Source of the DNA: Ianthella basta
Taxonomy: Eukaryota; Porifera; Demospongiae; Verongiida; Ianthellidae
Direction of reading: 5' to 3'
DNA length: 64,000 bases
Assembly: GCA_964019415.1 (NCBI GenBank)
Contig: OZ025871.1
Span: 1,139,629-1,203,628 of the forward strand
Below are positions 4,430 to 60,500 of the stretch, piece after piece (position 1 is the first letter of the stretch; each line of letters begins with the position of its first letter). The position numbers and the translations under genes are program-made. The notes under the pieces are model-generated. The model saw only the letters and a list, made by a program, of their open reading frames with translations, did no database searches and was not told the origin of the DNA.

Positions 4430-19863
<15,434 letters not shown>

Positions 19864-46039: not shown

Positions 46040-47839
46040 ATGGACAAGGTAGTATTCCTGGCCATCATTTTTGGATTGGTGTTTTGGGAGGCGGCTCTAG
46101 CCCAGGACGCGGTTTTGCAGACTGAATATGATTTCTTCACTCAACTGGGAACGAGTGGCAAGTACGAGCTGTACTGGAGCTTCGACGACTCAGCGAGCAA
46201 GATTTCGTTTGCTGTGCGCGTACAAACCACGGGATGGGTTGGATTCGGCGTGTCTCCGTTCGGCGGGATGAACCGAGCCGACGTTATAATTGGCTGGGTG
46301 AACGAGACGGGAACAGCGGTATTCCACGACAGGTTCGCAGAGACCACGGCGCTCCCTGAAATAGACCCCTCTCAGGACTGGACGCTTACTGAAGGCAGCG
46401 AAGCTTCAGGGTGGACCGTATTGAAGTTTGAGCGGCTCTACGACACCGGAGATACCGAGAGAGACCACCCTATTCTTCGTGGAACGACCAGACTCATTTT
46501 CAGTTGGAATGACGCTGAACCGGCCGAAGGTGGTAACCCCGACTACCACGGTAACAACAGAGGCACTCAGAGCATCAACTTGTTTGGAATGCTACAAGAC
46601 GTGCCTGATATTCCTCCAGATGCCATCAATCGCACCTTTCTTGTTAATAACATTCTCATCCCTCCCATCGACACCACCTACTGGTGCACCGCATTTGATG
46701 GGGGAGCGATTATCGGTCAGAAGGTCCACCACATCATCGGCTATGATGCTGTCGTTCAGCAGAACAGTAGCGAGCAGGTCCATCACATTGTCCTGTATCA
46801 CTGCGAGCCAGAAGACTTTGAGGGCCTCTCTGTGTCTGACGTTAACCGGCCATGTTCGGAGATCCCATCAGCAGCACGAGGTTGCCTAGCAAGGACTATT
46901 ATAGCAGCATGGGCCGTGGGTGGGTTGCCATTTTATTACCCAAACGATGTCAGCTACTCCATCGGAGGTCCAGGGAGTTCCCCATATTTCGTCATGCAAA
47001 TGCACTATGACAATCCGAGGATGTTGTCTGGTGTGGTGGACAGCTCTGGAATAATCGTTGTGTTGACTGAAACACCTAGGCAGCACGATGCTGGGTTGCT
47101 ATTGGTTGGGCAGGTTCTTCAAGGAATGTTCATCCCTCCACGGGCAACCAACTACTCCCTCGTTGCTGAATGCCCCTCAGATTGTACCTCCAGCATCCTT
47201 CCTTCATCAGGCATCACCTTCGTCGCCAGTCTTTTGCACACACACGAGGCAGGGCGGGGGCTTGTGGTCCGTCAATTCCGTGATGGTAACGAAATCCAGC
47301 CTCCCGTCGACATCAATTTGAACTATGACTTTGACTACCAGCAAATCAACATTATTCCTCGGCGTGTCTTACTTCCGAGTGACAGGTTGATAGTGGAGTG
47401 CTTCTATGACAATGTTCACAACGTGACTATTATAGGAGGGGAATCGACTCAGCAAGAGATGTGCTTTGGGTTCATGTACTACTATCCTCGGTTGCCCATC
47501 ACGGGCTGCTACAGCACAGCCTCCTCGACATCGTACAAGACTTTCTTGTCCCAGCAGGGGCCAGAAACACAGCTGGAAATTGTCGGGAACCTTAGTCGTT
47601 TCGGGTTTGACTTGAAGAGGTTTGTTGACAACTATCCGTGGAGCGATCAGCAATACACGATCTTCCAGGACTCTCTGATGGCTCACCAGACCCACTTCTG
47701 CCGCATTCCAAGAGAAGACGAAACAGCTTCACCCGTTAATTTGGAAGATCTGGAAGGTGGCAGCATTGTATTGCGTGTGGATGTGTTCGTTCTGATTGTG
47801 TGTGCAGTGTGTGCAGCGCTGTCACTGCGCACTGCTTGA
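46040..47839 (+). CDS. MOXD1: DBH/MOXD1-like copper monooxygenase with DOMON domain
   Basis: Intronless frame of 599 aa. Residues 1-21 look like a signal peptide. A DOMON domain follows (about 35-180, GWVGFGVSPFGGMNRADVIIGW), then the two copper type II monooxygenase domains. Predicted Cu-H ligands are His230-His231 (KVHHIIGYDAV) and His322 (MQMHYDNP); Cu-M ligands are His400 and His402 (LLHTHEAGRG) and Met474 (QQEMCFGF), all present, so the enzyme should be active. Family members hydroxylate with O2 and ascorbate in the secretory pathway. The C-terminus (about 576-596) is hydrophobic and could be a membrane or GPI-anchor signal. Vertebrate MOXD1 and DBH share this layout; orthology to one of them cannot be settled here, and the substrate is unknown. 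Confidence 0.92.
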   Translation: MDKVVFLAIIFGLVFWEAALAQDAVLQTEYDFFTQLGTSGKYELYWSFDDSASKISFAVRVQTTGWVGFGVSPFGGMNRADVIIGWVNETGTAVFHDRFAETTALPEIDPSQDWTLTEGSEASGWTVLKFERLYDTGDTERDHPILRGTTRLIFSWNDAEPAEGGNPDYHGNNRGTQSINLFGMLQDVPDIPPDAINRTFLVNNILIPPIDTTYWCTAFDGGAIIGQKVHHIIGYDAVVQQNSSEQVHHIVLYHCEPEDFEGLSVSDVNRPCSEIPSAARGCLARTIIAAWAVGGLPFYYPNDVSYSIGGPGSSPYFVMQMHYDNPRMLSGVVDSSGIIVVLTETPRQHDAGLLLVGQVLQGMFIPPRATNYSLVAECPSDCTSSILPSSGITFVASLLHTHEAGRGLVVRQFRDGNEIQPPVDINLNYDFDYQQINIIPRRVLLPSDRLIVECFYDNVHNVTIIGGESTQQEMCFGFMYYYPRLPITGCYSTASSTSYKTFLSQQGPETQLEIVGNLSRFGFDLKRFVDNYPWSDQQYTIFQDSLMAHQTHFCRIPREDETASPVNLEDLEGGSIVLRVDVFVLIVCAVCAALSLRTA

Positions 47840-48986: not shown

Positions 48987-50117
48987 TTAAGGGCACTTCT
49001 TATGAACAATAGCTGCTCCGGATTCCTGGTACTCCTTCTTGGTGATCCACATGTCTTTGAAAGTAGTCAGCGCAGCAAGAATAGACCCACCCATCCACGT
49101 GCTCAGGCTGCGGTTCTCTGGAGCTACAATATCAACTGCTGTCTCCTGTGGGCTGAGGGAAGCTATCTCCTTCAGCATGCGCTCCTTGTAGCCAGGGAAC
49201 ATGGTGCTGCCACCAGAGAGCACAATCCTGGAGTGCAGTTCTGAGGATAGTTTGGGATCGCTGGCACTGATCGACTGGTAGATGAGAGATGGCAGGCCAG
49301 GGGTTTGGTGGTCTAGGAGGGAAGGCTGAAATAAGACTTCAGTGCACTGGAATTTCTCAGAACCCACAGAAATCTTACTGCCGTCAGGAAGTTCAAACTC
49401 TGCTGCACCGCTGGAGCCTGCTTTCTCCATCTCCTGCTTTGCATCCACGGAAACATAGCAGAGCTTCTCCTTCAACCTATCCAAGGCTGCTCCTTTGGAA
49501 AGGGCATCGAGCTGAGCCAAAGATCCAGAGTGGCCCGCATCGCTCAACAACTTCTCCAAGTAAGTGTTGACAGTCATTCCACCGATGGTGTCTTTCTTCA
49601 TGCTCTGGGGCATGGCATAGCCCCCAGACACTGGTACGGCAAAAGACACGTCTTCTCCACTGTCCAACACCACTCCAGCCAAGCCGCCAGCTGCGTATAA
49701 GGCAAGAACTGCTCCGATGACGCTGTACATGGCGGGAACGTTGAAGGCTTCGAACATCATCTGAGTCATCTTCTCCCTGTTGGCCTTAGGGTTGAATGGC
49801 ACTTCCGTGAGGAGAACGGGATATTCGTCCGGTGAGACGGAAAGCGAGGTGAACAGGCTCTTCCAAACGTTCTCCATGTCGTCCCAGTTCACAACCAACC
49901 CGTGATTGATGGGACGTGATACCTTGACATTCTCCTTGCTGGCCGCCAGCTGCAGCGCCTCGTCACCAAAGACGAGTTCTTCGCCTGCCGTTCCACGTCC
50001 GACCACTGTCCGGAGCACTGTTTTGGGGGCCTTGTCTCCACACAGCCCAGCGCGGCACGCGTAAGTGCCATTGTCAATGACCACTGAAACTTCTCCACTC
50101 AAACAGGGTTTCTGCAT
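48987..50117 (-). CDS. Divergent actin-like protein, copy 1
   Basis: The frame from ATG 50117 gives 376 aa, actin length, ending IVHKKCP where actin ends IVHRKCF. A candidate 3' splice site (TTTTCAG) at about 50198 suggests a 5'UTR intron, so upstream in-frame codons are probably untranslated. The actin fold is clear: VVIDNGTYACRAG, NHGLVVNWDDMENVW, PFNPKANREKMTQMMFE, VVLDSGEDV, EKLCYV, ELPDGSKISVG, VLSGGSTMFPGYKERM, GGSILAALTTFKDMW. The nucleotide pocket (DNG, DSG, SGG) is kept. Position 137 of actin (catalytic Gln) is Gly135 here, and His161 is Phe159. The D-loop is absent: GRGTAGEELVFGDEA replaces the longer actin segment. It is neither a conventional actin nor a match to ARP1-3. Tandem with the copy at 51443. 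Confidence 0.85.
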   Translation of the reverse strand: MQKPCLSGEVSVVIDNGTYACRAGLCGDKAPKTVLRTVVGRGTAGEELVFGDEALQLAASKENVKVSRPINHGLVVNWDDMENVWKSLFTSLSVSPDEYPVLLTEVPFNPKANREKMTQMMFEAFNVPAMYSVIGAVLALYAAGGLAGVVLDSGEDVSFAVPVSGGYAMPQSMKKDTIGGMTVNTYLEKLLSDAGHSGSLAQLDALSKGAALDRLKEKLCYVSVDAKQEMEKAGSSGAAEFELPDGSKISVGSEKFQCTEVLFQPSLLDHQTPGLPSLIYQSISASDPKLSSELHSRIVLSGGSTMFPGYKERMLKEIASLSPQETAVDIVAPENRSLSTWMGGSILAALTTFKDMWITKKEYQESGAAIVHKKCP

Positions 50118-51442
50118 GCTGCTCGCTACCGGAACGACGTCCTCTCCACTAATCAGAAGAAGAGAATCGGATCGGAGGATCGTTCGTGTCTTGCACCTGA
50201 AAATAGTGGGATAAAGAGGATTCGCGCACGTGATGTTATGCAATTGATCACGTGAGCACAGCGTCATTGGGTGCATTCATTTGAGGTTTACATAGACAGG
50301 AGTAGCTAGCTGTACTGTTGGTCTATAAATGGATTAAAGAGAATAAGAGGAACATAATACAGAACACTGTCACATATACGATTCGCTAGGATGAAAGATA
50401 TAGCTAAATTGTGACCAAGACATTGCTGCTTAGCAGCCATTATGAACTTGAAACATACAGTGAACAATATTATAATTATTGGCCACAATTTTAAGCGATA
50501 TATATCTTCTATCCTACTGCGTTGTATATATGACAGTGTTATGTATTAAGTAGGGGATATCTGCTACAGACACGGACAATACATATGTGACAGTGCACGT
50601 GCAGCAGGCATTCATTCACGGGTTCAAATACTTATTGAATTAGTCAGCCAGTGTGTATGTGAACGACATGCATGACGGCCTCTTGAAACTAGCACACCCT
50701 GACACGCACAGCTGGTGGGGTGCACACACACGTGTACAAGGTGTGAACACTACTGCAGTGTATCTGTGCGTGCGTGTCTGTAATTTAGTTTAAATAATTG
50801 CGATTATGATCATTTAATCACATGCACACACATGCTAAACATTTAATTGCATTGCATTGTATGGGGACCACAGCTAATACTCCACTGCATGCATATGTGT
50901 GAGAGCCTTTCCTTAATAATTGTTTGTGCGTACTTAAAATTTGTACCATGCATTCCTACATCTAGCACATGCAAACACTCCACTTGCAATTGCCTGCACT
51001 TGTATGTGGTGGTAAGGTATAATACTCCATGCAGCTCTTCGCCTTGTGCTGGTGGAACTCTGCATGGATGGTCCCCTATCTGCAGTATGCAGCACTGCTG
51101 CATATAATACACTGCAGTTGCATGCACATATACTTGCACTGTGTGGTGGTACATTTACGTGTAATTATAATATATGTTTGGTTGATGGCTCCAGAAACAC
51201 CAAATTTTCATACAAAAAGAACCCAAACCAATATAAATACACACCTGAGAAGGAATAAGGACTATAGAGATTATACAAACATGTGAAAATACATGCAATG
51301 AAACAGAAGGTTTTGATAAATTAAGAGCAATAAAGCTATCCAAAAACGTCGAACACTGGAGCAGGTCAGCAGAATACATCGGCAAACATCCAAACTCAAA
51401 AAGAATGTTTCAAAGTGTTGATTGCATATTGTCATATGCCAA
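50118..51442. other. Spacer between the two actin-like genes
   Basis: It should hold the 5' exon or promoter of copy 1 and the 3' region of copy 2. No coding signal or array is seen. Confidence 0.5.
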
Positions 51443-52645
51443 TTAATAGCATTTTCTATGTACAATGGCTGGTCCAAATTCCTGGTACTCTTTATTGGTC
51501 ACCCACATGTCTTTGAAGGAAGACAATGAAGCGAGAATAGACCCACCGATCCATGAGCACAGGCTGCGGTCTTCTTGAGCTACAACATTGATTACCGACT
51601 TCTTCTTTGAAGGGAGCGGGCTCAGGGAAGTTATTTCTTTCAGCATGCGCTCCTTGTAGCCGCGGAACATGGTGTTCCCACCAGAGAGCACAATCCGGGA
51701 GTGCAGTTCTGAGGAGAGTTTGGGATCACTGGCAGTGATTGACTGATGGATGAGAGATGGTAGGCCAGGGGTTTGGTGGTCTAGGAGGGAAGGCTGAAAT
51801 AAGACTTCAGTGCATTGGAATCTCTCAGGGCCCACAGAAATCTTACTACCGTCAGGAAGTTCAAACTCTGCTGCACTGCGGGATCCCATTTTCTTCAACT
51901 CCTGCTTTGCATCCATGGAAACATAGCAGAGCTTCTCCTTCAACCTATCCAAGGCTGCTCCTTTGGAAAGGGCATCGAGCTGAGCCAAAGATCCAGAATG
52001 ACCTGCATTGCTCAACATCTTCTCCAAATAGACGTTGACACATGACCCACTGATCATGTCTTTCCTAATCCCCTGGGGCATTGAATAGCCATCAAACACT
52101 GGCACAGCGAAAGTTACATCTTCTCCACTGTCCAACACAACCCCTGTAGTGTCACCAGTTGCGTACAAGGCAAGAACTGCTCCGATGGAGCTGTACATGG
52201 CGGGAACGTTGAAGGCTTCGAACATCATCTGAGTCATCTTCTCCCTGTTGGCCTTAGGGTTGAATGGCACTTCCGTGAGGAGAACGGGATATTCGTCCGG
52301 TGAGACGGAAAGCGAGGTGAACAGGCTCTTCCAAATGCTCTCCATGTCGTCCCAGTTCACAACTAACCCGTGGTTGATAGGACGCGATACCTTGGCATTC
52401 TCCTTGCTGGTCGACAACTGCAGCGCCTCGTCACCAAAGACGAGTTCTTCGCAGCCGTCGTCCGGACCTGCCGTACTGTGTCCAGCCAACGTCCGCAGCA
52501 CTTTGTGGGGCGTCTCGTCTCCGCTGAACCCAGCGCGACACGTGTAAGTGCCGTTGTCGATAACAACTGCAGCTATTCCTCCTTCCTCCTTGGGATCGGT
52601 GCTCGTCACAGGCGCTGAGGCCTTTCGGGCAAGATTGCCGGACAT
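51443..52645 (-). CDS. Divergent actin-like protein, copy 2
   Basis: The frame from ATG 52645 gives 400 aa. A splice-acceptor-like GCTTCGAACAG just upstream suggests the earlier in-frame ATG at 52684 is intronic. The N-terminus is about 20 residues longer than actin, then the fold follows: VVIDNGTYTCRAGF, NHGLVVNWDDMESIW, VVLDSGEDVTF, VLSGGNTMFRGYKERM, GGSILASLSSFKDMW, ending IVHRKCY. As in copy 1, the actin Gln137 position is Gly155 and His161 is Phe179, and the D-loop is replaced by a short unrelated HSTAGPDDGCEE. SGGNTMFRG differs from SGGTTMYPG of actin by a Pro-to-Arg change. Between the copies the proteins are very similar, with a 146-bp stretch identical in DNA. A tandem duplicate of copy 1. 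Confidence 0.85.
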   Translation of the reverse strand: MSGNLARKASAPVTSTDPKEEGGIAAVVIDNGTYTCRAGFSGDETPHKVLRTLAGHSTAGPDDGCEELVFGDEALQLSTSKENAKVSRPINHGLVVNWDDMESIWKSLFTSLSVSPDEYPVLLTEVPFNPKANREKMTQMMFEAFNVPAMYSSIGAVLALYATGDTTGVVLDSGEDVTFAVPVFDGYSMPQGIRKDMISGSCVNVYLEKMLSNAGHSGSLAQLDALSKGAALDRLKEKLCYVSMDAKQELKKMGSRSAAEFELPDGSKISVGPERFQCTEVLFQPSLLDHQTPGLPSLIHQSITASDPKLSSELHSRIVLSGGNTMFRGYKERMLKEITSLSPLPSKKKSVINVVAQEDRSLCSWIGGSILASLSSFKDMWVTNKEYQEFGPAIVHRKCY

Positions 52646-53115
52646 CGCGCTGTGCTTGCCTGTTCGAAGCAAAATCAATTCCAAAGGTTGCTAGATAGCC
52701 TTTTATATATCAAACAGCACCTAGTATTTCAATACTACGTAGTACAAATACTTCCAAAGTACAAAATTCTATTAATATGTGGTCAATGTTACAAAGAATA
52801 GCTCTCCCCTTTCACGGTTCGTGACAATGAGATGGGGACTCACTCGTGTGGACAATCGGGTCTCTCTGTTCTTATCTCAGCCATATACAAAATGACTGTG
52901 GTGGCAGCTGCACTGTGTCACACATGCATAATGTATGATGTCACATAGGTTGGCATGTTAACAGGACACATTTAAATCTCATGCACTTATACACACACAG
53001 TCTACACATCTGCAATACAATGTTCCTTGAGGCAGTATACAGATATCTGATCCCCTATCACTACAGAGTACACTGATCAAATAAAAATTTGGAAGGCAAT
53101 TAGCATCACATTCCT
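52646..53115. other. Spacer between actin-like copy 2 and the Tudor gene
   Basis: It contains the copy 2 promoter side and the Tudor gene 3' flank; no feature beyond that is recognised. Confidence 0.45.
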
Positions 53116-54409
53116 TTACATTTTAGATAAGCGCGGTGATGCGTGTCCCATGGCAACTAGCTTGTCAGCTACGTCCTCATTCCCATTCCCAATCTCAGCT
53201 TGAACACACAGTTGCCCGTCACTCTTGACTGATGTAACCACAGCTTGGAAACTTGCTGATGACCTAATAATGGAGACAAAGTCCTTCACTGCTTCCTCTG
53301 TCCAGCCTTGTGCGGCTTCAACCGGTTCAATGTATGCCAAAGAGCAATGCAAGGCTTGACAGGGAGTAGTTTGGAACTTGGCTGGCAGTGGGCGAAGGGT
53401 TGAAGTGGACACCTGCTCAATGGTACCTCTGTCAACTAGAAGAACATTTGTTGCAAGTGTGCTATCAGTGTCATCTGCGGGAAGGAAGGAAGTGAGAAGA
53501 CATACCAAGGGAGTCAAGTTACCCAAAGAATGACACACCAAATAGATCATGAAGGAGAGAAGCCATGCTTGTGTACTAAAGGACTGTTGATAATGAAGGT
53601 GCAATCCTGTTCACAACACTGAATCAGAATAACAGTGGCTTCAAAATGACCAATGAGCTACAAGCCGACTAATGGCAGCAGTGTGCTATGGATACCGACC
53701 TGGTTGCTAAGAGCAACACACACACTAAATAGCATAATATCAGATTTCATCTCTCAGCAGATAGTGCATGAGCTGATAACCTCTCATTGCACCACCAGCA
53801 CACATATTACAACAGAACCCCTATATAGAGGACACCTCTCTAATGAGGACAGTGCCTACTGTCCATGCTACATAGAGATGTGTACAAAGCTACCTCTGAA
53901 ATAAGGACACCTCTCTAATGAGGACAGTGCCTACTGTCCCAGCTACATAGAGATGTGTACAAAGCTACCTCTGAAATAAGGACACCTCTCTAATGAGGAC
54001 AGTGCCTACTGTCCCAGCTACATAGAGATGTGTACAAAACTACCTCTGAAATAAGGACATCTCACTAATGAGGACACTTGGGCCTGTCTTAATCTTTCCA
54101 CAGATGTCTGGAAAGAACATGTGTCGCTGTATTCCAGGAAACTGACCAGTGGTCTCAAATTAGTGGTCTACCCCAAAACACCTGTAAAATTGCCATTATT
54201 GCAGAAATAAAGGCAGTCTTAAAAGATGCCCAAGACAGCCAGTGGACAGATGCTGTCGGTGAGATCTGCCAATTTACCCACAAGCGCACAGTGAAAGGGT
54301 TTCCTTGCCATTCAATGACATATTCATTTGTGCAATGACAAAATTCACAGCTATTATGTTACCATCACTGACCTAACCACTGTCCAAACAGATTCAGCAA
54401 TAGTAAGGT

Positions 54410-54444
<35 letters not shown>

Positions 54445-54530
54445 ACGCATCCACACACACACGCACACACACGTACACACGTACACACGCACACACACGT
54501 ACACACGTATGCACACACGCACGCGTGCGT

Positions 54531-54593
<63 letters not shown>

Positions 54594-57500
54594 GTCCATA
54601 CAGGCCCACAGAGAAGTGACCTTTGCACCCTAACAATACAACTTTGACCCGTAATGAGATTAAGGTCCAACAATAAGTAGAAGACAGCAACACCACCTCA
54701 CCTTGCAGCACCTCTCCTCTGTACCACTGTCCATCAGAGCTGCACTGCACCAGAACTGGGGTGCCTGGCCCCGCCCCCTCTCCCACCTGCCCCTCCCCTC
54801 CTTCCTCTCTTACGTGTTCTTGAATGGCATGCATTAATGGCTGTAGGATCTGCCCTGAGCCAATCAGATGGCAGATAAACTGCTCAGGGCTGTCAGCACT
54901 GGAAAATAGCAGTTCAAGCCTGTCACCTTGGGTAAACACAAGAGTCTTATACGCAGACAGAGACCTGCCAACATCACTGGAGTAGCTTGACCCTGTTGGA
55001 GGCGTGGTTGGGGGAGGGGAGAACCCTGGAAATCCTCCAACCTGACCCATGTGGTTGTGTGGCGGGGATACAACGTGGCCAAAGGCTAATGAATGCAGCG
55101 AGGCCGGCTGGTATGGGAAAGCGGGCTGCATCAAGTGTTTCGGAGAGGAACCTAGGGAGAAAGAGTAACTGGGTATGGCCTTGTGCAGGGGGCTCACATG
55201 AGGAGACGGCTGGAGAGACCTACTCAGGCCAGACGGCTGTTGGGCTTTGTTCACACCCACTTTGCTGCTGTCACGGAAACCTCTGCCGAGAGGCTTGGGG
55301 TGTGGTGTCGTCTTAGCAGTTGGCACAACAGGACTGCGCTTGGAGTCAACATTAGCAGACAGCGAAGAGAAAGAGTTGGGAGAAATGACCTCCCAGCTTG
55401 CTTCTGGGCTAACGACAGAAGGAGCCTGCTTTGAGTCCTTTGAGCCGCCAGTGCTAGCTGGTACATCCGAAGAATGTGTGGAAACAACCTCCCAGCTGGG
55501 GCTCATTGACATGTTATCCTTTTCACTCCCTTTTGCACCGTCTAGTGGTGGGGTTTGTTCTGCGGGGGAGGAGTCAGTGCCTGTCGGTTCAATCTGGACA
55601 TCTTTGGAAGCATCTGAGAGTTGCCTAGCAACTGACAAGTCGTCTGTCTGGTGGAGCCTTTCATCCTGACCTGTCTGCAAGCCAACTGCATCTCCAGTTT
55701 CATGAGGAAGATCACCTGTCTCTGGTACATCTTCTGGATCCTCCCTAGCACTAATTGCAGGGACTTCCTCCTCCAATGTTGCATCTACTGAGGGTAGGAG
55801 TTGCTCTTTTGGTTGTTCTCTGTTATCCTCAGGGGGAGCCCCTTGCAATTGTTTTGGTACCACCCCCTGCCCATCCCCCTCAGCCAGAGGTGGGTCATCT
55901 CCCTTTGCCTCACCTTCCACAGGTTCTCTGACCTGCAATGCAACTTCTTCCTCATCTTTATCACCCTCAGATATAGCTGTTTGGGGAACAGTGTCCCTTG
56001 CGGGAGACTCTGAAGATGGGGTAGCCTCTGTGGGCGGGGCCAGAGGATTTGTGAACTGGCCATCAGATATAGCGAGCACATATCCAGCGTTGACAATAGC
56101 TTGATTGAGAGATCGACCGTCTGGTGTGGACAGGACAACTCGGGCAACATTGTCTGCTGACATCTGGGAGGATGAGAGGAGAGAGTGACTGGGGAGAGGT
56201 GTAGGGCAGAACAATGTGAGAGCTATGGGGCAGCTGCAATGGATGGACAGTACAATGGAGAGGAGATGAGAGGAGCTCAAGAGTGAGGAGAGGAGTGTGT
56301 GTAGCGAGTGAAGTGACAGAGCAGTGAATGAGATTGAAACAAGATTGTGAGTACCAAATAGCCACTGATTGCTGCTGTTTCAATTGTTCCATGAGTGACT
56401 GGTTGACACACAGAACAAGACTAGAGACACGTGCACAGACTCACTCCCAATACTTGTATCTGCAATTTCATTTCCAAGTAGCTCTCAAGGTACTCAATGC
56501 AGTCTTCACTGAATACACCATCAGCGCTCTTGCTCTCCACACCTATCATTGAACAATGAATCGCAAAGGGAGCTTCTTCTCCAAACTCTTTAGCCAAACG
56601 ACAGAGCTCCTTCAGTGGAATTACATCGGAGCTCCCGTAGTCCACAAACATTACGTCCACCTTCGGATTATTGCCTTCAGAGTAGTCAACTGAGACCACT
56701 TCTCCGCGGTACCAGGTTTCATCTTCTCCAGACTGGAAGCACACAATGTCTTTCTCCTTCGGTACACCTGTGAATTTGAAGTCAAAGAAGCACAGGTCAT
56801 TGTAGAAGTTGTTCAGATCTTCCATGAACCTTTCCAGTTTGTCCTGTCTGCTAGCACGGTGGCAAAAGAAGGAATGGGGACTGTCCACATGGGAGAGGAT
56901 TACGGCTGTTTCAACACCCACTTCCAATGCAACAGAACTGGGAATGGAATCACAGTACTCGGAGGGGTCACACCCAATGGGGTCTCTACCCTCCCCCTCC
57001 CCAGTCAGTGCGGCCAGAGGATCTGTGAACTGTCCATCAGATGTAGCGAGCACATATCCAGCGTTGACAATAGCTTGATTAAGAGATCGGCCATCTGGTG
57101 TGGACAGGACAACTCGAGCAACATTGTCTGTTGACATCTGGGAGGATGAGAGGAGAGAGTGATTGGGGAGAAGAACAGCGTGATGACTAGGGACAGCCAT
57201 GCAGGGTGCTGAGGGCACAAGGGATGTGACAGGATAGACATGAAGTGGGGATTGAGAGGGAGCATGCAAGTGAGGGTGACAAGAAGGGCTAAACAGTGAA
57301 TTAGAAAGGTGCATCCAGTTACATACACACACAATCTCACATACGCATGTAGTGACTATGCTAAACTACACGTGAAACCATGTGTGTACTGAGGTCTCAA
57401 TACATGTAGGACGGCTGTACTTAACAAGAATCGGAACTGGAAGGCCGTGGCTAGTAAATTGTGTTCCATGAGTGACTGGTTGACACACAGAACAAGACTA

Positions 57501-60500
57501 GAGACAAGTGCATAGACTCACTCCCAATACTTGTATCTTCAATTTCGTTTCCAAATAGCTCTCAAGGTACTCAATGCAGTCTTCACTGAATTCATCGTCA
57601 GCACTCTTGCTCTCCACACCTATCATTGAACACTGAATCGCAAAGGGAGCTTCTTCTCCAAACTCTTTAGCCAAACGACAGAGTTCCTTCAGTGGAATTA
57701 CATCGGAGCTCCCGTAGTCCACAAACATTACGTCCACTTTTGGATCATCCTCATCATCATAGTCAATTGAGGCCACTTCTCCTCTGTACCAAGTTTCATC
57801 TTCTCCGGATTGGAAGCACACAATCTCGCCCTCCTCTGGTTCGTCTGTCAACTTGAAATCAAAGAAGCACAGGTCATTGTAGAAGTTGTTCAGATCTTCC
57901 ATGAACTTGTCCAGGTTGTCCTGTCTGCTAGCACGGTGGCAAAAGAAGGAATGGGGACTGTCCACATGGGAGAGGATTACGGCTGTTTCAACACCCACTT
58001 CCAATGTAGCAGAATTGGGAATGGAAATACAGTACTCTGAGGGGTCAAATCCAATAGGGTCTCTATCCTCCTCCTCCTCCTCCTCCTCATCAAACCATTC
58101 ATCATCATCAATCTCATCACCGAGTGAAAGATTGGCTGCTTCTTCAGATAATGGTGCTCCTTCCTCAGCTAGTACATCAACTTCCTTCTCGTCAGTCTGT
58201 TGACTGTCAGCACCAACTTCCTGTTCTGATGCAGTAAGATCTTTCTGCTCTAATGGAGTGGCAGCTTCCTGTTCTGGTGGAGTGGCAACATCCTGTTTTG
58301 GTGGAGTAGGCTCAGATGAAGAAGTAGTTACCACCATTTCTGGTGAAATATCACTTTGCTGTAGAGTAGCATCAACTTCCTGTGGGGTAGCAACTTCCTG
58401 TGGCTCAGAATCAAGCTTGGGCAGAGGGGTTAGGCCAGAATCTTTTTCTGCTTCTACTATTTCAGGAAGTTCATCATCTCCTTGCTCATCTGTTGGCTGT
58501 GCTGGCCTGTCTGTTTTCTGTTCCGGTAAGGTACCTACTTCCTGTTCTGTTGGATTGTCAACATCCTGCTCTAATGAAGTAATGACATTCTGATCGGACC
58601 CAGGCACAACGACTTCCTGTTCAACTGAGGTAATAACGTCTTGTTCTGGTGGAGTATCAAACTCATTTGGTTGGATTGTGGCAGTGTGTTCCACTGCTTC
58701 GGTTTTCTCCAATGAAGGTTCCTCTTCCTGCTCTTGCAACATGACTTCTTTTTCCTGTTTTCGCTCCGGACTACTCCCTGACGATTCACTGTTGCCACAC
58801 TCATCCTCCAGCTGGCAGACTATCTCCTGGGACAAGTTACGTCCTGTTTCCATGTCCATTAGTCTAATGACAGCCCTCTCTCCTGCTGCAGTGGGCAACA
58901 CCACTTCAGCTTGAAGCACCTTACCAGAGACAAATTTGACAACAGTGTTCTGGTATTCAATAGGCCAATTGTCCCTACGTGGAACATCGGCAAGGCAACA
59001 GAGGATGGCTTGTTGAGGCAGCATGAGAAAAGACTTGGGGCAGAACAATATTGAATCCAGAGCTATGTCTTCCGAGTTACCATAATCTACAGAAAATAGC
59101 TGACAAGTGTTATTGACTGGATCGTATTCTCCAAGAACCTCAGCACGGTTCCACACTGTGTCACTAGAGAACCTTGCAAGGACAAACTCCCCCTTCTTGG
59201 GCGGTGCTTCTAGACCATAAAAGGCTCCCTCCATTGAAGAGTCCTCCTGAGAGATTGTACTGGTATATTGGTCAATGTCACTCATCAGTGTGTCAAGCTC
59301 TGACATGCAGTCACAGCGCTGTATGTAGACAATGGATGGGTTGTCAACGGCCACCACTTGCACCTGAAGCACCTCCTTGACTCCGAGAGAGAGCTTGAAA
59401 GGCACAACTGAGGGAGAAATGGGCCCGTCAGTTGATGAACTTGTCTCATCACTGTCAGAAGATTCAGTCTTGCCAAAGAGGGATTGCTTCTCCCTGATGG
59501 GAGGTGATGGAATGGAAGCTATTGTGGTTTGAAACTCATCCCCGGCACTTTCAAACCCTTCCTCCTCCTCTTCTTCACGTTTGTCCCTAAGTTCTTCATC
59601 CACTGTCAAAACTTTGGTTAGTCCATCATCTTCTTCTGCATCTGCCTCACTGGGAAGATTTGAGCTAGCATCTTCCCCAACGATGGTTTCCTCGACCCGA
59701 CCTAGCTGAAGGACAGTTGACATATCCACTTCCACCCCCGCTTCATTACACAATCGAACCAAGTACTTCCCCCTTGAGATTTCCTTCACAACTGTGACAA
59801 TATATTGAGAACCTTCAACTATAACCTCTTTGAATGCCTCTTCCATTTTCTCTGTTCTTCCACTCTTGAGTGGTTCCGCTGCTGGAACACAGGAGCAGTG
59901 GATCAATTGGGCTCTGCCAGAGAGGAGCTGAGAAGGGAGCTCAGCTAACTTCGCCACCGGCACCACCTCCTGGTTCCCGTAGTCAATGAATCTTAGCAAC
60001 ACTTGATCACTGCTGATGACTTCCTCAATTACAGCTCGGTACCAGGAGTCTTCCTGACTAAAGCATCCCGCACAGATGACACCCACCTCAATGCGACTCT
60101 TCTCCATTGGTTGGGCTTCGGCCAGTAGGTCAGCCATTTTTGTCATGATGTCATCCAGCTCAGCAGCCATGTGAAGAGGTTGGCAGAAGAAGGAATCTGC
60201 TGAGTCAATACTGGAAATGTACACATCGATCTTGTCACCAATACCAACCTTGAGCGGCCATTTAAAGGTGGTGGAGGACGTTGTTTGAGCCTTCCCGCTA
60301 TCATCACCATCACCCGGTAACAGTCTCTCTGCTATTCTCTCCAGTTCTTCATCTCCAGAAGACTTTCTGCTTAGCCTATCAGAGAACATTCGACCCACCT
60401 CGGTGCCCTCTTCATCCCACAGGGTGACAACAGCTGTTCTTTCTATTATTTTTCGAACTTCCAATTCAAACACTTGGCCCTTGACGACAGACACAAAGTC

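What the first reader, a model, noticed from the sequence alone, without database searches (positions are those of the whole stretch)
48987..52645. Tandem actin-like genes that keep the nucleotide pocket but lack the hydrolysis residues and the D-loop
Both copies keep DNG, DSG and SGG phosphate and nucleotide loops and the subdomain 1 NWDDME and KANREKM blocks. Both have Gly at the position of Gln137 and Phe at the position of His161, the residues that position water for ATP hydrolysis in actin. Both also lack the DNase-binding loop, the major longitudinal contact of the filament. Seen directly: the substitutions and the deletion. Known: the role of these residues in actin. Inference: ATP-binding proteins that hydrolyse poorly and do not form normal filaments, perhaps caps, inhibitors or a lineage-specific ARP class.
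Basis: partly seen in the sequence, partly recalled or inferred. Interest (0 to 1): 0.72.

Follow-up and report, generated by a model that had tools for sequence, protein, structure and literature searches.

The report
Tandem pair of divergent actin-related proteins
Two neighbouring genes, probably from an animal, encode actin-shaped proteins that probably hold ATP without splitting it and probably do not build normal actin filaments; such offshoots of actin are already known as a class, although this pair's ATP pocket resembles that of a nuclear actin relative, Arp4.

Summary
Two intact minus-strand genes (48987-50117, 376 aa; 51443-52645, 400 aa) encode actin-family proteins, 79% identical to each other and 47-49% identical to conventional actin. 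Gln137 to Gly and His161 to Phe are real and lie in ungapped alignment blocks. First, the pocket is not simply kept: both copies also have Gly15 to Tyr, Lys18 to Arg, Asp157 to Glu and Gly158 to Asp; Tyr15 with Arg18 is the state of human Arp4 (ACTL6A). Second, only copy 1 lacks the D-loop (10 residues against 18); copy 2 has 15 residues of unrelated sequence. The copies are not fully independent witnesses: a gene-conversion tract ends beside the Gln137 codon; His161 lies outside it.
Losing both residues is not new: Arp4 and Arp10 lack both, as do 4 of 15 actin-like genes fetched here. The pair is best read as a non-canonical Arp that holds ATP structurally, hydrolyses it poorly, and has a remodelled pointed face and a kept target-binding cleft. 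Trees could not settle whether it is a fast-evolving actin or an older Arp branch. Structure prediction failed (pLDDT 29-30) and the own-genome search did not complete.

The parts
48987..50117 (-). Copy 1: actin-like gene, 376 aa from Met53 of the open frame 48987-50276
   Evidence: frame; Pfam Actin 369.8 bits; conventional actins best; homology to copy 2 starts at 50086
51443..52645 (-). Copy 2: actin-like gene, 400 aa
   Evidence: (Pfam Actin 374 bits)
49965..50000 (-). Copy 1 G36-to-G55 stretch: 10 residues in between where actin has 18 (D-loop missing)
52433..52483 (-). Copy 2 G36-to-G55 stretch: 15 residues in between, sequence unlike actin's D-loop
49713..49715 (-). Copy 1 codon GGA (Gly) at the actin Gln137 position
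52181..52183 (-). Copy 2 codon GGA (Gly) at the actin Gln137 position
49641..49643 (-). Copy 1 codon TTT (Phe) at the actin His161 position
52109..52111 (-). Copy 2 codon TTC (Phe) at the actin His161 position
50052..50063 (-). Copy 1 P1 loop with Tyr at Gly15 and Arg at Lys18 (as in ACTL6A)
52535..52546 (-). Copy 2 P1 loop with Tyr at Gly15 and Arg at Lys18
49722..49867 (-). Copy 1 side of the 146-nt tract identical to copy 2 52190-52335: gene conversion
52190..52335 (-). Copy 2 side of the 146-nt identical tract
49449..49529 (-). Copy 1, 81-nt identical tract that covers the 5-residue insertion near actin 199-205 (pointed face, subdomain 4)
   Evidence: start, end by counting 81 bases
51917..51997 (-). 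Copy 2, same 81-nt identical tract and insertion
   Evidence: start, end by counting 81 bases

Best explanation
A tandem pair of non-canonical actin-related proteins, probably in an animal genome. Shown: intact frames, actin-family membership, the residue changes, constraint between the copies and gene conversion between them. Inferred: the proteins fold like actin and bind ATP as a structural cofactor, with Asp11, Gly13, Asp154, Gly156, Lys213, Glu214 and Gly302 kept; they hydrolyse it poorly, because the two residues linked to hydrolysis in actin filaments are gone and the P1 loop carries Tyr15 as in Arp4; they do not extend an ordinary filament, because the pointed face (D-loop, loop 199-206, region 61-64) is rebuilt and Asp288, part of a predicted longitudinal salt bridge and of the site mutated in polymerization-incompetent DVD-actin, is Lys. 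They act through the kept target-binding cleft (15 and 17 of 21 positions as in actin), either docking on actin or holding cleft-binding partners, as a cap, monomer holder or complex subunit.
For: Family and closest relatives. Identity to actin 0.48-0.49, Arp1 0.40, Arp2 0.36-0.37, human Arp4 0.32-0.34, Arp3 0.30-0.31. Actin-unique residues shared: 19 of 75 and 17 of 78, against 10 of 71, 10 of 72 and 8 of 79 for Arp6, Arp10 and yeast Arp4. Pocket sites. Pointed face 6 and 7 of 36 positions as in actin against 114 and 115 of 233 in the rest, Fisher P 0.0002 and 0.001; cleft 15 and 17 of 21, P 0.067 and 0.006 (face lists recalled). Constraint. [quoted passage not shown] Predicted Arg62-Asp288 salt bridge: passage of PMC4132179. 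DVD-actin: passage of PMC12215623. H161 flips toward ATP on filament formation: passages of PMC10643162.
Against: No structure: both AlphaFold models had mean pLDDT of 29-30. No expression data, no biochemistry and no relatives from the same lineage; the own-genome search did not complete. Arp8, with Glu and Ser at these positions, still has low basal ATPase activity (PMC3510490), so losing the two residues need not abolish hydrolysis. Arp3 also has a poorly conserved pointed face (5 of 36, P 0.0025) yet belongs to the filament-nucleating Arp2/3 complex (recalled), so this feature does not show failure to join filaments. The cleft is kept to the same degree in human Arp4 (15 of 21, P 0.004) and Arp1 (16 of 21, P 0.02), so it is not distinctive; copy 1's own value is not significant. 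The barbed face as a whole is only 18 of 40 in each copy. In the trees the pair stands on the Arp4 side, not with actin (95/93, 77/92); pair plus actins gave p-AU 0.0901, 0.0519 and, without pocket columns, 0.174.
Confidence: 0.55

Rival explanations
1. An old, separate Arp class (or a sister branch of Arp4) that happens to keep more actin-like sequence than Arp4 does; Tyr15 and Arg18 would then be inherited, not convergent.
For: Unrooted trees place the pair on the Arp4 side of actin plus Arp1-3 with support 77/92, 95/93 and, with 41 pocket columns removed, 84/89, and 74/90 with 23 rows. Residues found in ACTL6A but not in actin or Arp1-3 that both copies share include Y15, R18, T33, Q173 and K177.
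Against: Identity to human Arp4 is 0.32-0.34 against 0.48-0.49 to actin. Only 9 of 159 and 13 of 161 ACTL6A-unique residues are shared, against 19 of 75 and 17 of 78 actin-unique ones. Human and yeast Arp4 group together without the pair (95/93); pair plus ACTL6A alone gave p-AU 0.0475, and 0.0777 without pocket columns. The Arp4 branches are long and the inner branches short.
Confidence: 0.25
2. A private filament or heteromer: the two copies polymerize or pair with each other, not with actin, through a rebuilt interface.
For: Tandem pair under constraint; of the 22 pointed-face positions that differ from actin in both copies, 20 are identical between the copies; Lys at 288 changes the charge of a predicted longitudinal contact.
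Against: No test of interaction. Position 62 aligns to Glu in one alignment and to Lys in others, so a swapped salt bridge cannot be claimed. The D-loops differ in length (10 and 15). Part of the identity comes from gene conversion.
Confidence: 0.08
3. Degenerating duplicates on the way to pseudogenes, with the pocket changes as decay.
For: Many substitutions at sites that are the same in the three actins compared; no evidence of expression is at hand.
Against: Both frames are open over their whole length (about 10^-8 by chance), dN/dS between copies is about 0.35-0.43, and the internal length differences between the copies are whole codons.
Confidence: 0.05

Closest known systems
Conventional actin (PF00022)
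   Same: The 60 best solved structures shown for each copy (of 161 matched) are actins; kept NWDDME, KANREKM, DNG, DSG, SGG and most cleft residues
   Different: 47-49% identity; Q137G, H161F, G15Y, K18R; shortened or replaced D-loop; 5-residue insertion near 199-205; D288K
Arp4 / ACTL6A
   Same: Tyr15 and Arg18, loss of Gln137 and His161, Gln at His173, kept cleft in the human protein; Arp4 is reported to bind ATP and not to hydrolyse it above background
   Different: Only 32-34% identity; Arp4 has insertions that the pair lacks; the sensor His73 is kept here and is Asn in both Arp4s
Arp10 (Arp11) of dynactin
   Same: No D-loop (2 residues in the alignment), Ser at Gln137, Leu at His161; from recall, caps the pointed end of the Arp1 filament
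   Different: Arp10 is 29% identical to actin; pair plus Arp10 was not rejected (p-AU 0.189), but long branches are in play
Non-canonical Arps such as Drosophila Arp53D
   Same: Divergent actin-fold proteins outside the canonical families (passages of PMC8291977)
   Different: Arp53D has a 40-residue N-terminal extension; no sequence comparison with it was made here; expression of the window pair is unknown

Membership tests
Actin family (PF00022) | Match above the curated cut-off over the whole domain | tested here: met
   369.8 and 374 bits, cut-off 27, profile 6-409 and 4-409 of 410
Conventional actin | Gln137 and His161 and a full D-loop | tested here: not met
   Gly and Phe; 10 and 15 residues instead of 18
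Conventional actin | High sequence identity among actins | tested here: not met
   0.48-0.49 against 0.94-0.98 among three actins
Arp4 / ACTL6A | Closer to Arp4 than to actin, inside the Arp4 clade | tested here: not met
   Identity 0.32-0.34 against 0.48-0.49; human and yeast Arp4 group without the pair, 95/93. The pair is nevertheless their neighbour in the unrooted trees
Arp4 / ACTL6A | Altered P1 loop and loss of Gln137 and His161 | tested here: met
   Tyr15 and Arg18 as in ACTL6A; Gly and Phe where ACTL6A has Thr and Thr
Arp4 / ACTL6A | Subunit of chromatin-remodelling complexes | not testable with these tools
   needs interaction data
Arp10 (Arp11) | Grouping with Arp10 | tested here: inconclusive
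   not in the best tree; p-AU 0.189, long branch
Non-canonical Arp | Actin-fold protein that falls in no canonical Arp family | tested here: inconclusive
   Compared with Arp1, 2, 3, 4, 6 and 10; Arp5 and Arp8 not included; place between actin and Arp4 unresolved
Non-canonical Arp | Restricted to one lineage | not tested
   No collection of animal genomes was at hand; the own-genome search did not complete (13 requests, first, last)
Non-canonical Arp | Restricted, often germline, expression | not testable with these tools
   no RNA data
Non-polymerizing, ATP-holding actin | Binds ATP, no stimulated hydrolysis, no filaments | not testable with these tools
   inferred from residues only

The most novel reading that the evidence does not exclude
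An unrecognised animal Arp class that combines a cytoplasmic-actin body and sensor loop with an Arp4-type structural ATP site, kept as a co-evolving pair by gene conversion and working as a dedicated pointed-end cap or a heteromer outside the actin filament.
Probability: 0.15. Interest if true: 0.6.

Novelty: new member of a known kind. Interest (0 to 1): 0.36.

Why it matters
If confirmed, the pair would be another case in which the residues linked to actin's ATP hydrolysis and its pointed-end interface were given up while the ATP site and partner-binding cleft were kept. Relatives would make it testable which loss comes first and whether ATP is a structural cofactor in such proteins. It does not open a new kind of system: Arp4, Arp8 and Arp10 already show parts of it.

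Tried and rejected
Structure prediction from the two window proteins gave mean pLDDT 29.3 and 29.8; I ran no fold search on such models.

A swapped Arg62-Asp288 salt bridge was considered and dropped: Asp288 to Lys is firm, but position 62 is Glu in the HMMER alignment and Lys in the MAFFT ones.

Membership in Arp4 was considered because of Tyr15 and Arg18 and the trees; rejected as membership on identity and on the Arp4 clade, kept as a functional analogy and as a rival.

Search for relatives: copy 2 alone gave none in viral contigs (1 candidate stretch) or genome contigs (11 candidates); the two copies together gave none in viral contigs (112 candidates). With an actin row added, 12 of 104 candidate stretches in genome contigs and 1 of 45 in viral contigs encoded relatives; each of these 13 loci is nearer to actin than to copy 2 by the tblastn identities.

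Literature: a search for actin-related protein with Gln137, His161 and ATP hydrolysis found 0 papers; the listings of two searches around sponge actin-like genes (sponge was a guess at the source) showed no title on such a pair. Only the open-licence library was searched. No paper was read whole: of those cited I saw passages.

Full report
What is there. Two open frames lie head to tail on the minus strand: 48987-50276 (copy 1; I take Met53 at 50117 as the start, 376 aa) and 51443-52645 (copy 2, 400 aa). Both match Pfam Actin across the profile at 369.8 and 374 bits, and the 60 best solved structures shown for each, of 161 matched, are actins. DNA homology between the copies runs from 50086 to 48969 and from 52569 to 51421, 84% identical over 1151 aligned columns, so it hardly extends beyond the coding parts. 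Frames this long have a chance of about 10^-8 each.

The residues. Actin's Gln137 is Gly (GGA) and His161 is Phe (TTT and TTC) in both copies. Asp11, Gly13, Asp154, Gly156, Lys213, Glu214, Gly302 and the sensor His73 are kept. Over 31 pocket positions that I listed from recall, 16 and 17 match actin; Arp1, Arp2 and Arp3 match 23, 26 and 21, and human and yeast Arp4 15 and 13.

The D-loop. Between Gly36 and Gly55 actin has 18 residues, copy 1 has 10 and copy 2 has 15. So copy 1 lacks the loop and copy 2 has a loop of nearly normal length and unrelated sequence. The frame crosses this region without interruption in both, so no exon is hidden there. There is also a 5-residue insertion near actin 199-205, in subdomain 4, in both copies.

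How independent are the copies. They are 79% identical (298 of 376 aligned residues). Nucleotide identity is patchy. A 146-nt identical run (copy 1 49722-49867) was not reached in 10,000 codon shuffles, and an 81-nt run had P 0.0024. At synonymous sites the first run (55 codons) had P 0.0005 and the second P 0.066, so the second tract is less certain. The first long run ends six bases before the 137 codon, and the synonymous run reaches past it, so Gly137 may have been spread by conversion. Position 161 lies outside, in windows with dS 0.44 and 0.72 and with different Phe codons, so that change was probably already there before the copies diverged. Overall dN is 0.12-0.13 and dS 0.29-0.34 by three methods; conversion lowers both, so the ratio of about 0.35-0.43 is only a rough guide to constraint.

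Place among actins and Arps. I compared the pair with three actins and with verified sequences of Arp1, 2, 3, 4, 6 and 10 and yeast Arp4. Identity is 0.48-0.49 to actin, 0.40 to Arp1, 0.36-0.37 to Arp2, 0.32-0.34 to human Arp4 and 0.30-0.31 to Arp3. Residues unique to actin are shared at 19 of 75 and 17 of 78 positions; Arp6, Arp10 and yeast Arp4 share 10 of 71, 10 of 72 and 8 of 79. This favours actin. The trees do not: unrooted, the pair stands on the Arp4 side with 77/92 (11 rows), 95/93 (10 rows), 84/89 when 41 pocket columns are removed and 74/90 (23 rows). Holding the pair with the actins gave p-AU 0.0901, 0.0519 and, without pocket columns, 0.174. Human and yeast Arp4 stay together without the pair (95/93); pair plus ACTL6A alone gave p-AU 0.0475, or 0.0777 without pocket columns. 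Pair plus Arp1 gave 0.0196 and pair plus Arp10 0.189. Arp5 and Arp8 were not included. The place is unresolved.

Are the losses special. No. Human Arp4 has Thr and Thr at 137 and 161, yeast Arp4 Thr and Ser, Arp10 Ser and Leu; Arp6 has Ala and keeps His. PMC3510490 (passages) reports Glu and Ser at these positions in Arp8, which keeps a low basal ATPase activity, an altered nucleotide site in Arp4, and no hydrolysis by Arp4 above background. Among 15 actin-like genes on 13 fetched loci (two of them partial), Gln137 is lost in 8, His161 in 5 and both in 4. Tyr15 also occurs in Arp6 and yeast Arp4; Tyr15 together with Arg18 occurs only in ACTL6A among the rows compared with the pair.

Likely working. 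From PMC10643162 (passages), His161 flips toward ATP on filament formation and favours hydrolysis; PMC3510490 gives Gln137 a critical role. Losing both, with Tyr in the P1 loop, points to ATP held as a structural cofactor. Against recalled lists of filament contacts, the pointed face keeps 6 and 7 of 36 actin residues and the rest 114 and 115 of 233 (P 0.0002 and 0.001), while the target-binding cleft keeps 15 and 17 of 21 (P 0.067 and 0.006). Controls temper this: Arp1 keeps 16 of 36 pointed-face residues, but Arp3 keeps only 5 (P 0.0025); and the cleft is equally kept in human Arp4 (15 of 21, P 0.004) and Arp1 (16 of 21, P 0.02). Asp288, predicted to pair with Arg62 between subunits (PMC4132179) and one of three residues changed in polymerization-incompetent DVD-actin (PMC12215623), is Lys. 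A protein with a usable cleft and a blocked pointed face could cap pointed ends, as AP-actin is said to do, but the barbed face as a whole is only 18 of 40, so a role as a monomer or complex subunit is as likely.

Setting. Neighbouring frames match DOMON and copper monooxygenase domains, Tudor (three frames, with repeats shared between neighbours) and GREB1 domains, which, from recall of where GREB1 occurs, suggests an animal; the species was not identified. The own-genome search was asked 13 times and never answered.

Verdict. The pair is best filed as a new non-canonical Arp pair with an Arp4-like pocket. The mechanism is inference from residues.

Noticed in passing
L009:2392-6143: Three tandem actin-like genes (401, 414, 413 aa), each with a hydrophobic signal-peptide-like start (by eye), beside what look like bacterial genes in a MAG named Candidatus Finniella inopinata (a protist endosymbiont, per PMC11909080). 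All three lack Gln137 and His161, two have Ser15 and Arg18, and the D-loops are 11, 15 and 16 residues: a parallel to the window pair, perhaps secreted actin mimics. The passages on actin and Finniella shown from PMC11909080 do not mention them.
   Followed up: partly
L001:1041-2141: Actin-like gene on a contig of an Alteromonadaceae MAG, 82-83% identical to actin, also with Gly at Gln137 and a 12-residue D-loop but with His161 kept: the two losses can occur separately.
   Followed up: partly
56385-56684 and 57462-57761; frames 53116-53604, 54394-56379, 56421-57365 (-): Tudor-domain frames next to the actin pair, and a 300-nt repeat 93% identical at a spacing of 1077: a second local tandem duplication.
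   Followed up: partly
53808-54076: Three overlapping copies of a 119-nt match at 75-nt spacing, 87-90% identical: a short tandem repeat.
   Followed up: no
46040-47839 (+): Single long frame, 599 aa, with DOMON and both copper type II monooxygenase domains, dopamine beta-hydroxylase-like.
   Followed up: no
11537-13630, 17451-18506 and 18970-19863 (+): Exon-like frames matching GREB1 helicase-like, TET-associated glycosyltransferase and GREB1 C-terminal domains: probably one GREB1-like gene with introns.
   Followed up: no
52700-52709 (-): TATATAAAAG about 55 bases upstream of the copy 2 ATG, seen directly in the sequence; upstream of copy 1 a splice-acceptor-like tract ends near 50197, which could mean an upstream exon.
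   Followed up: no
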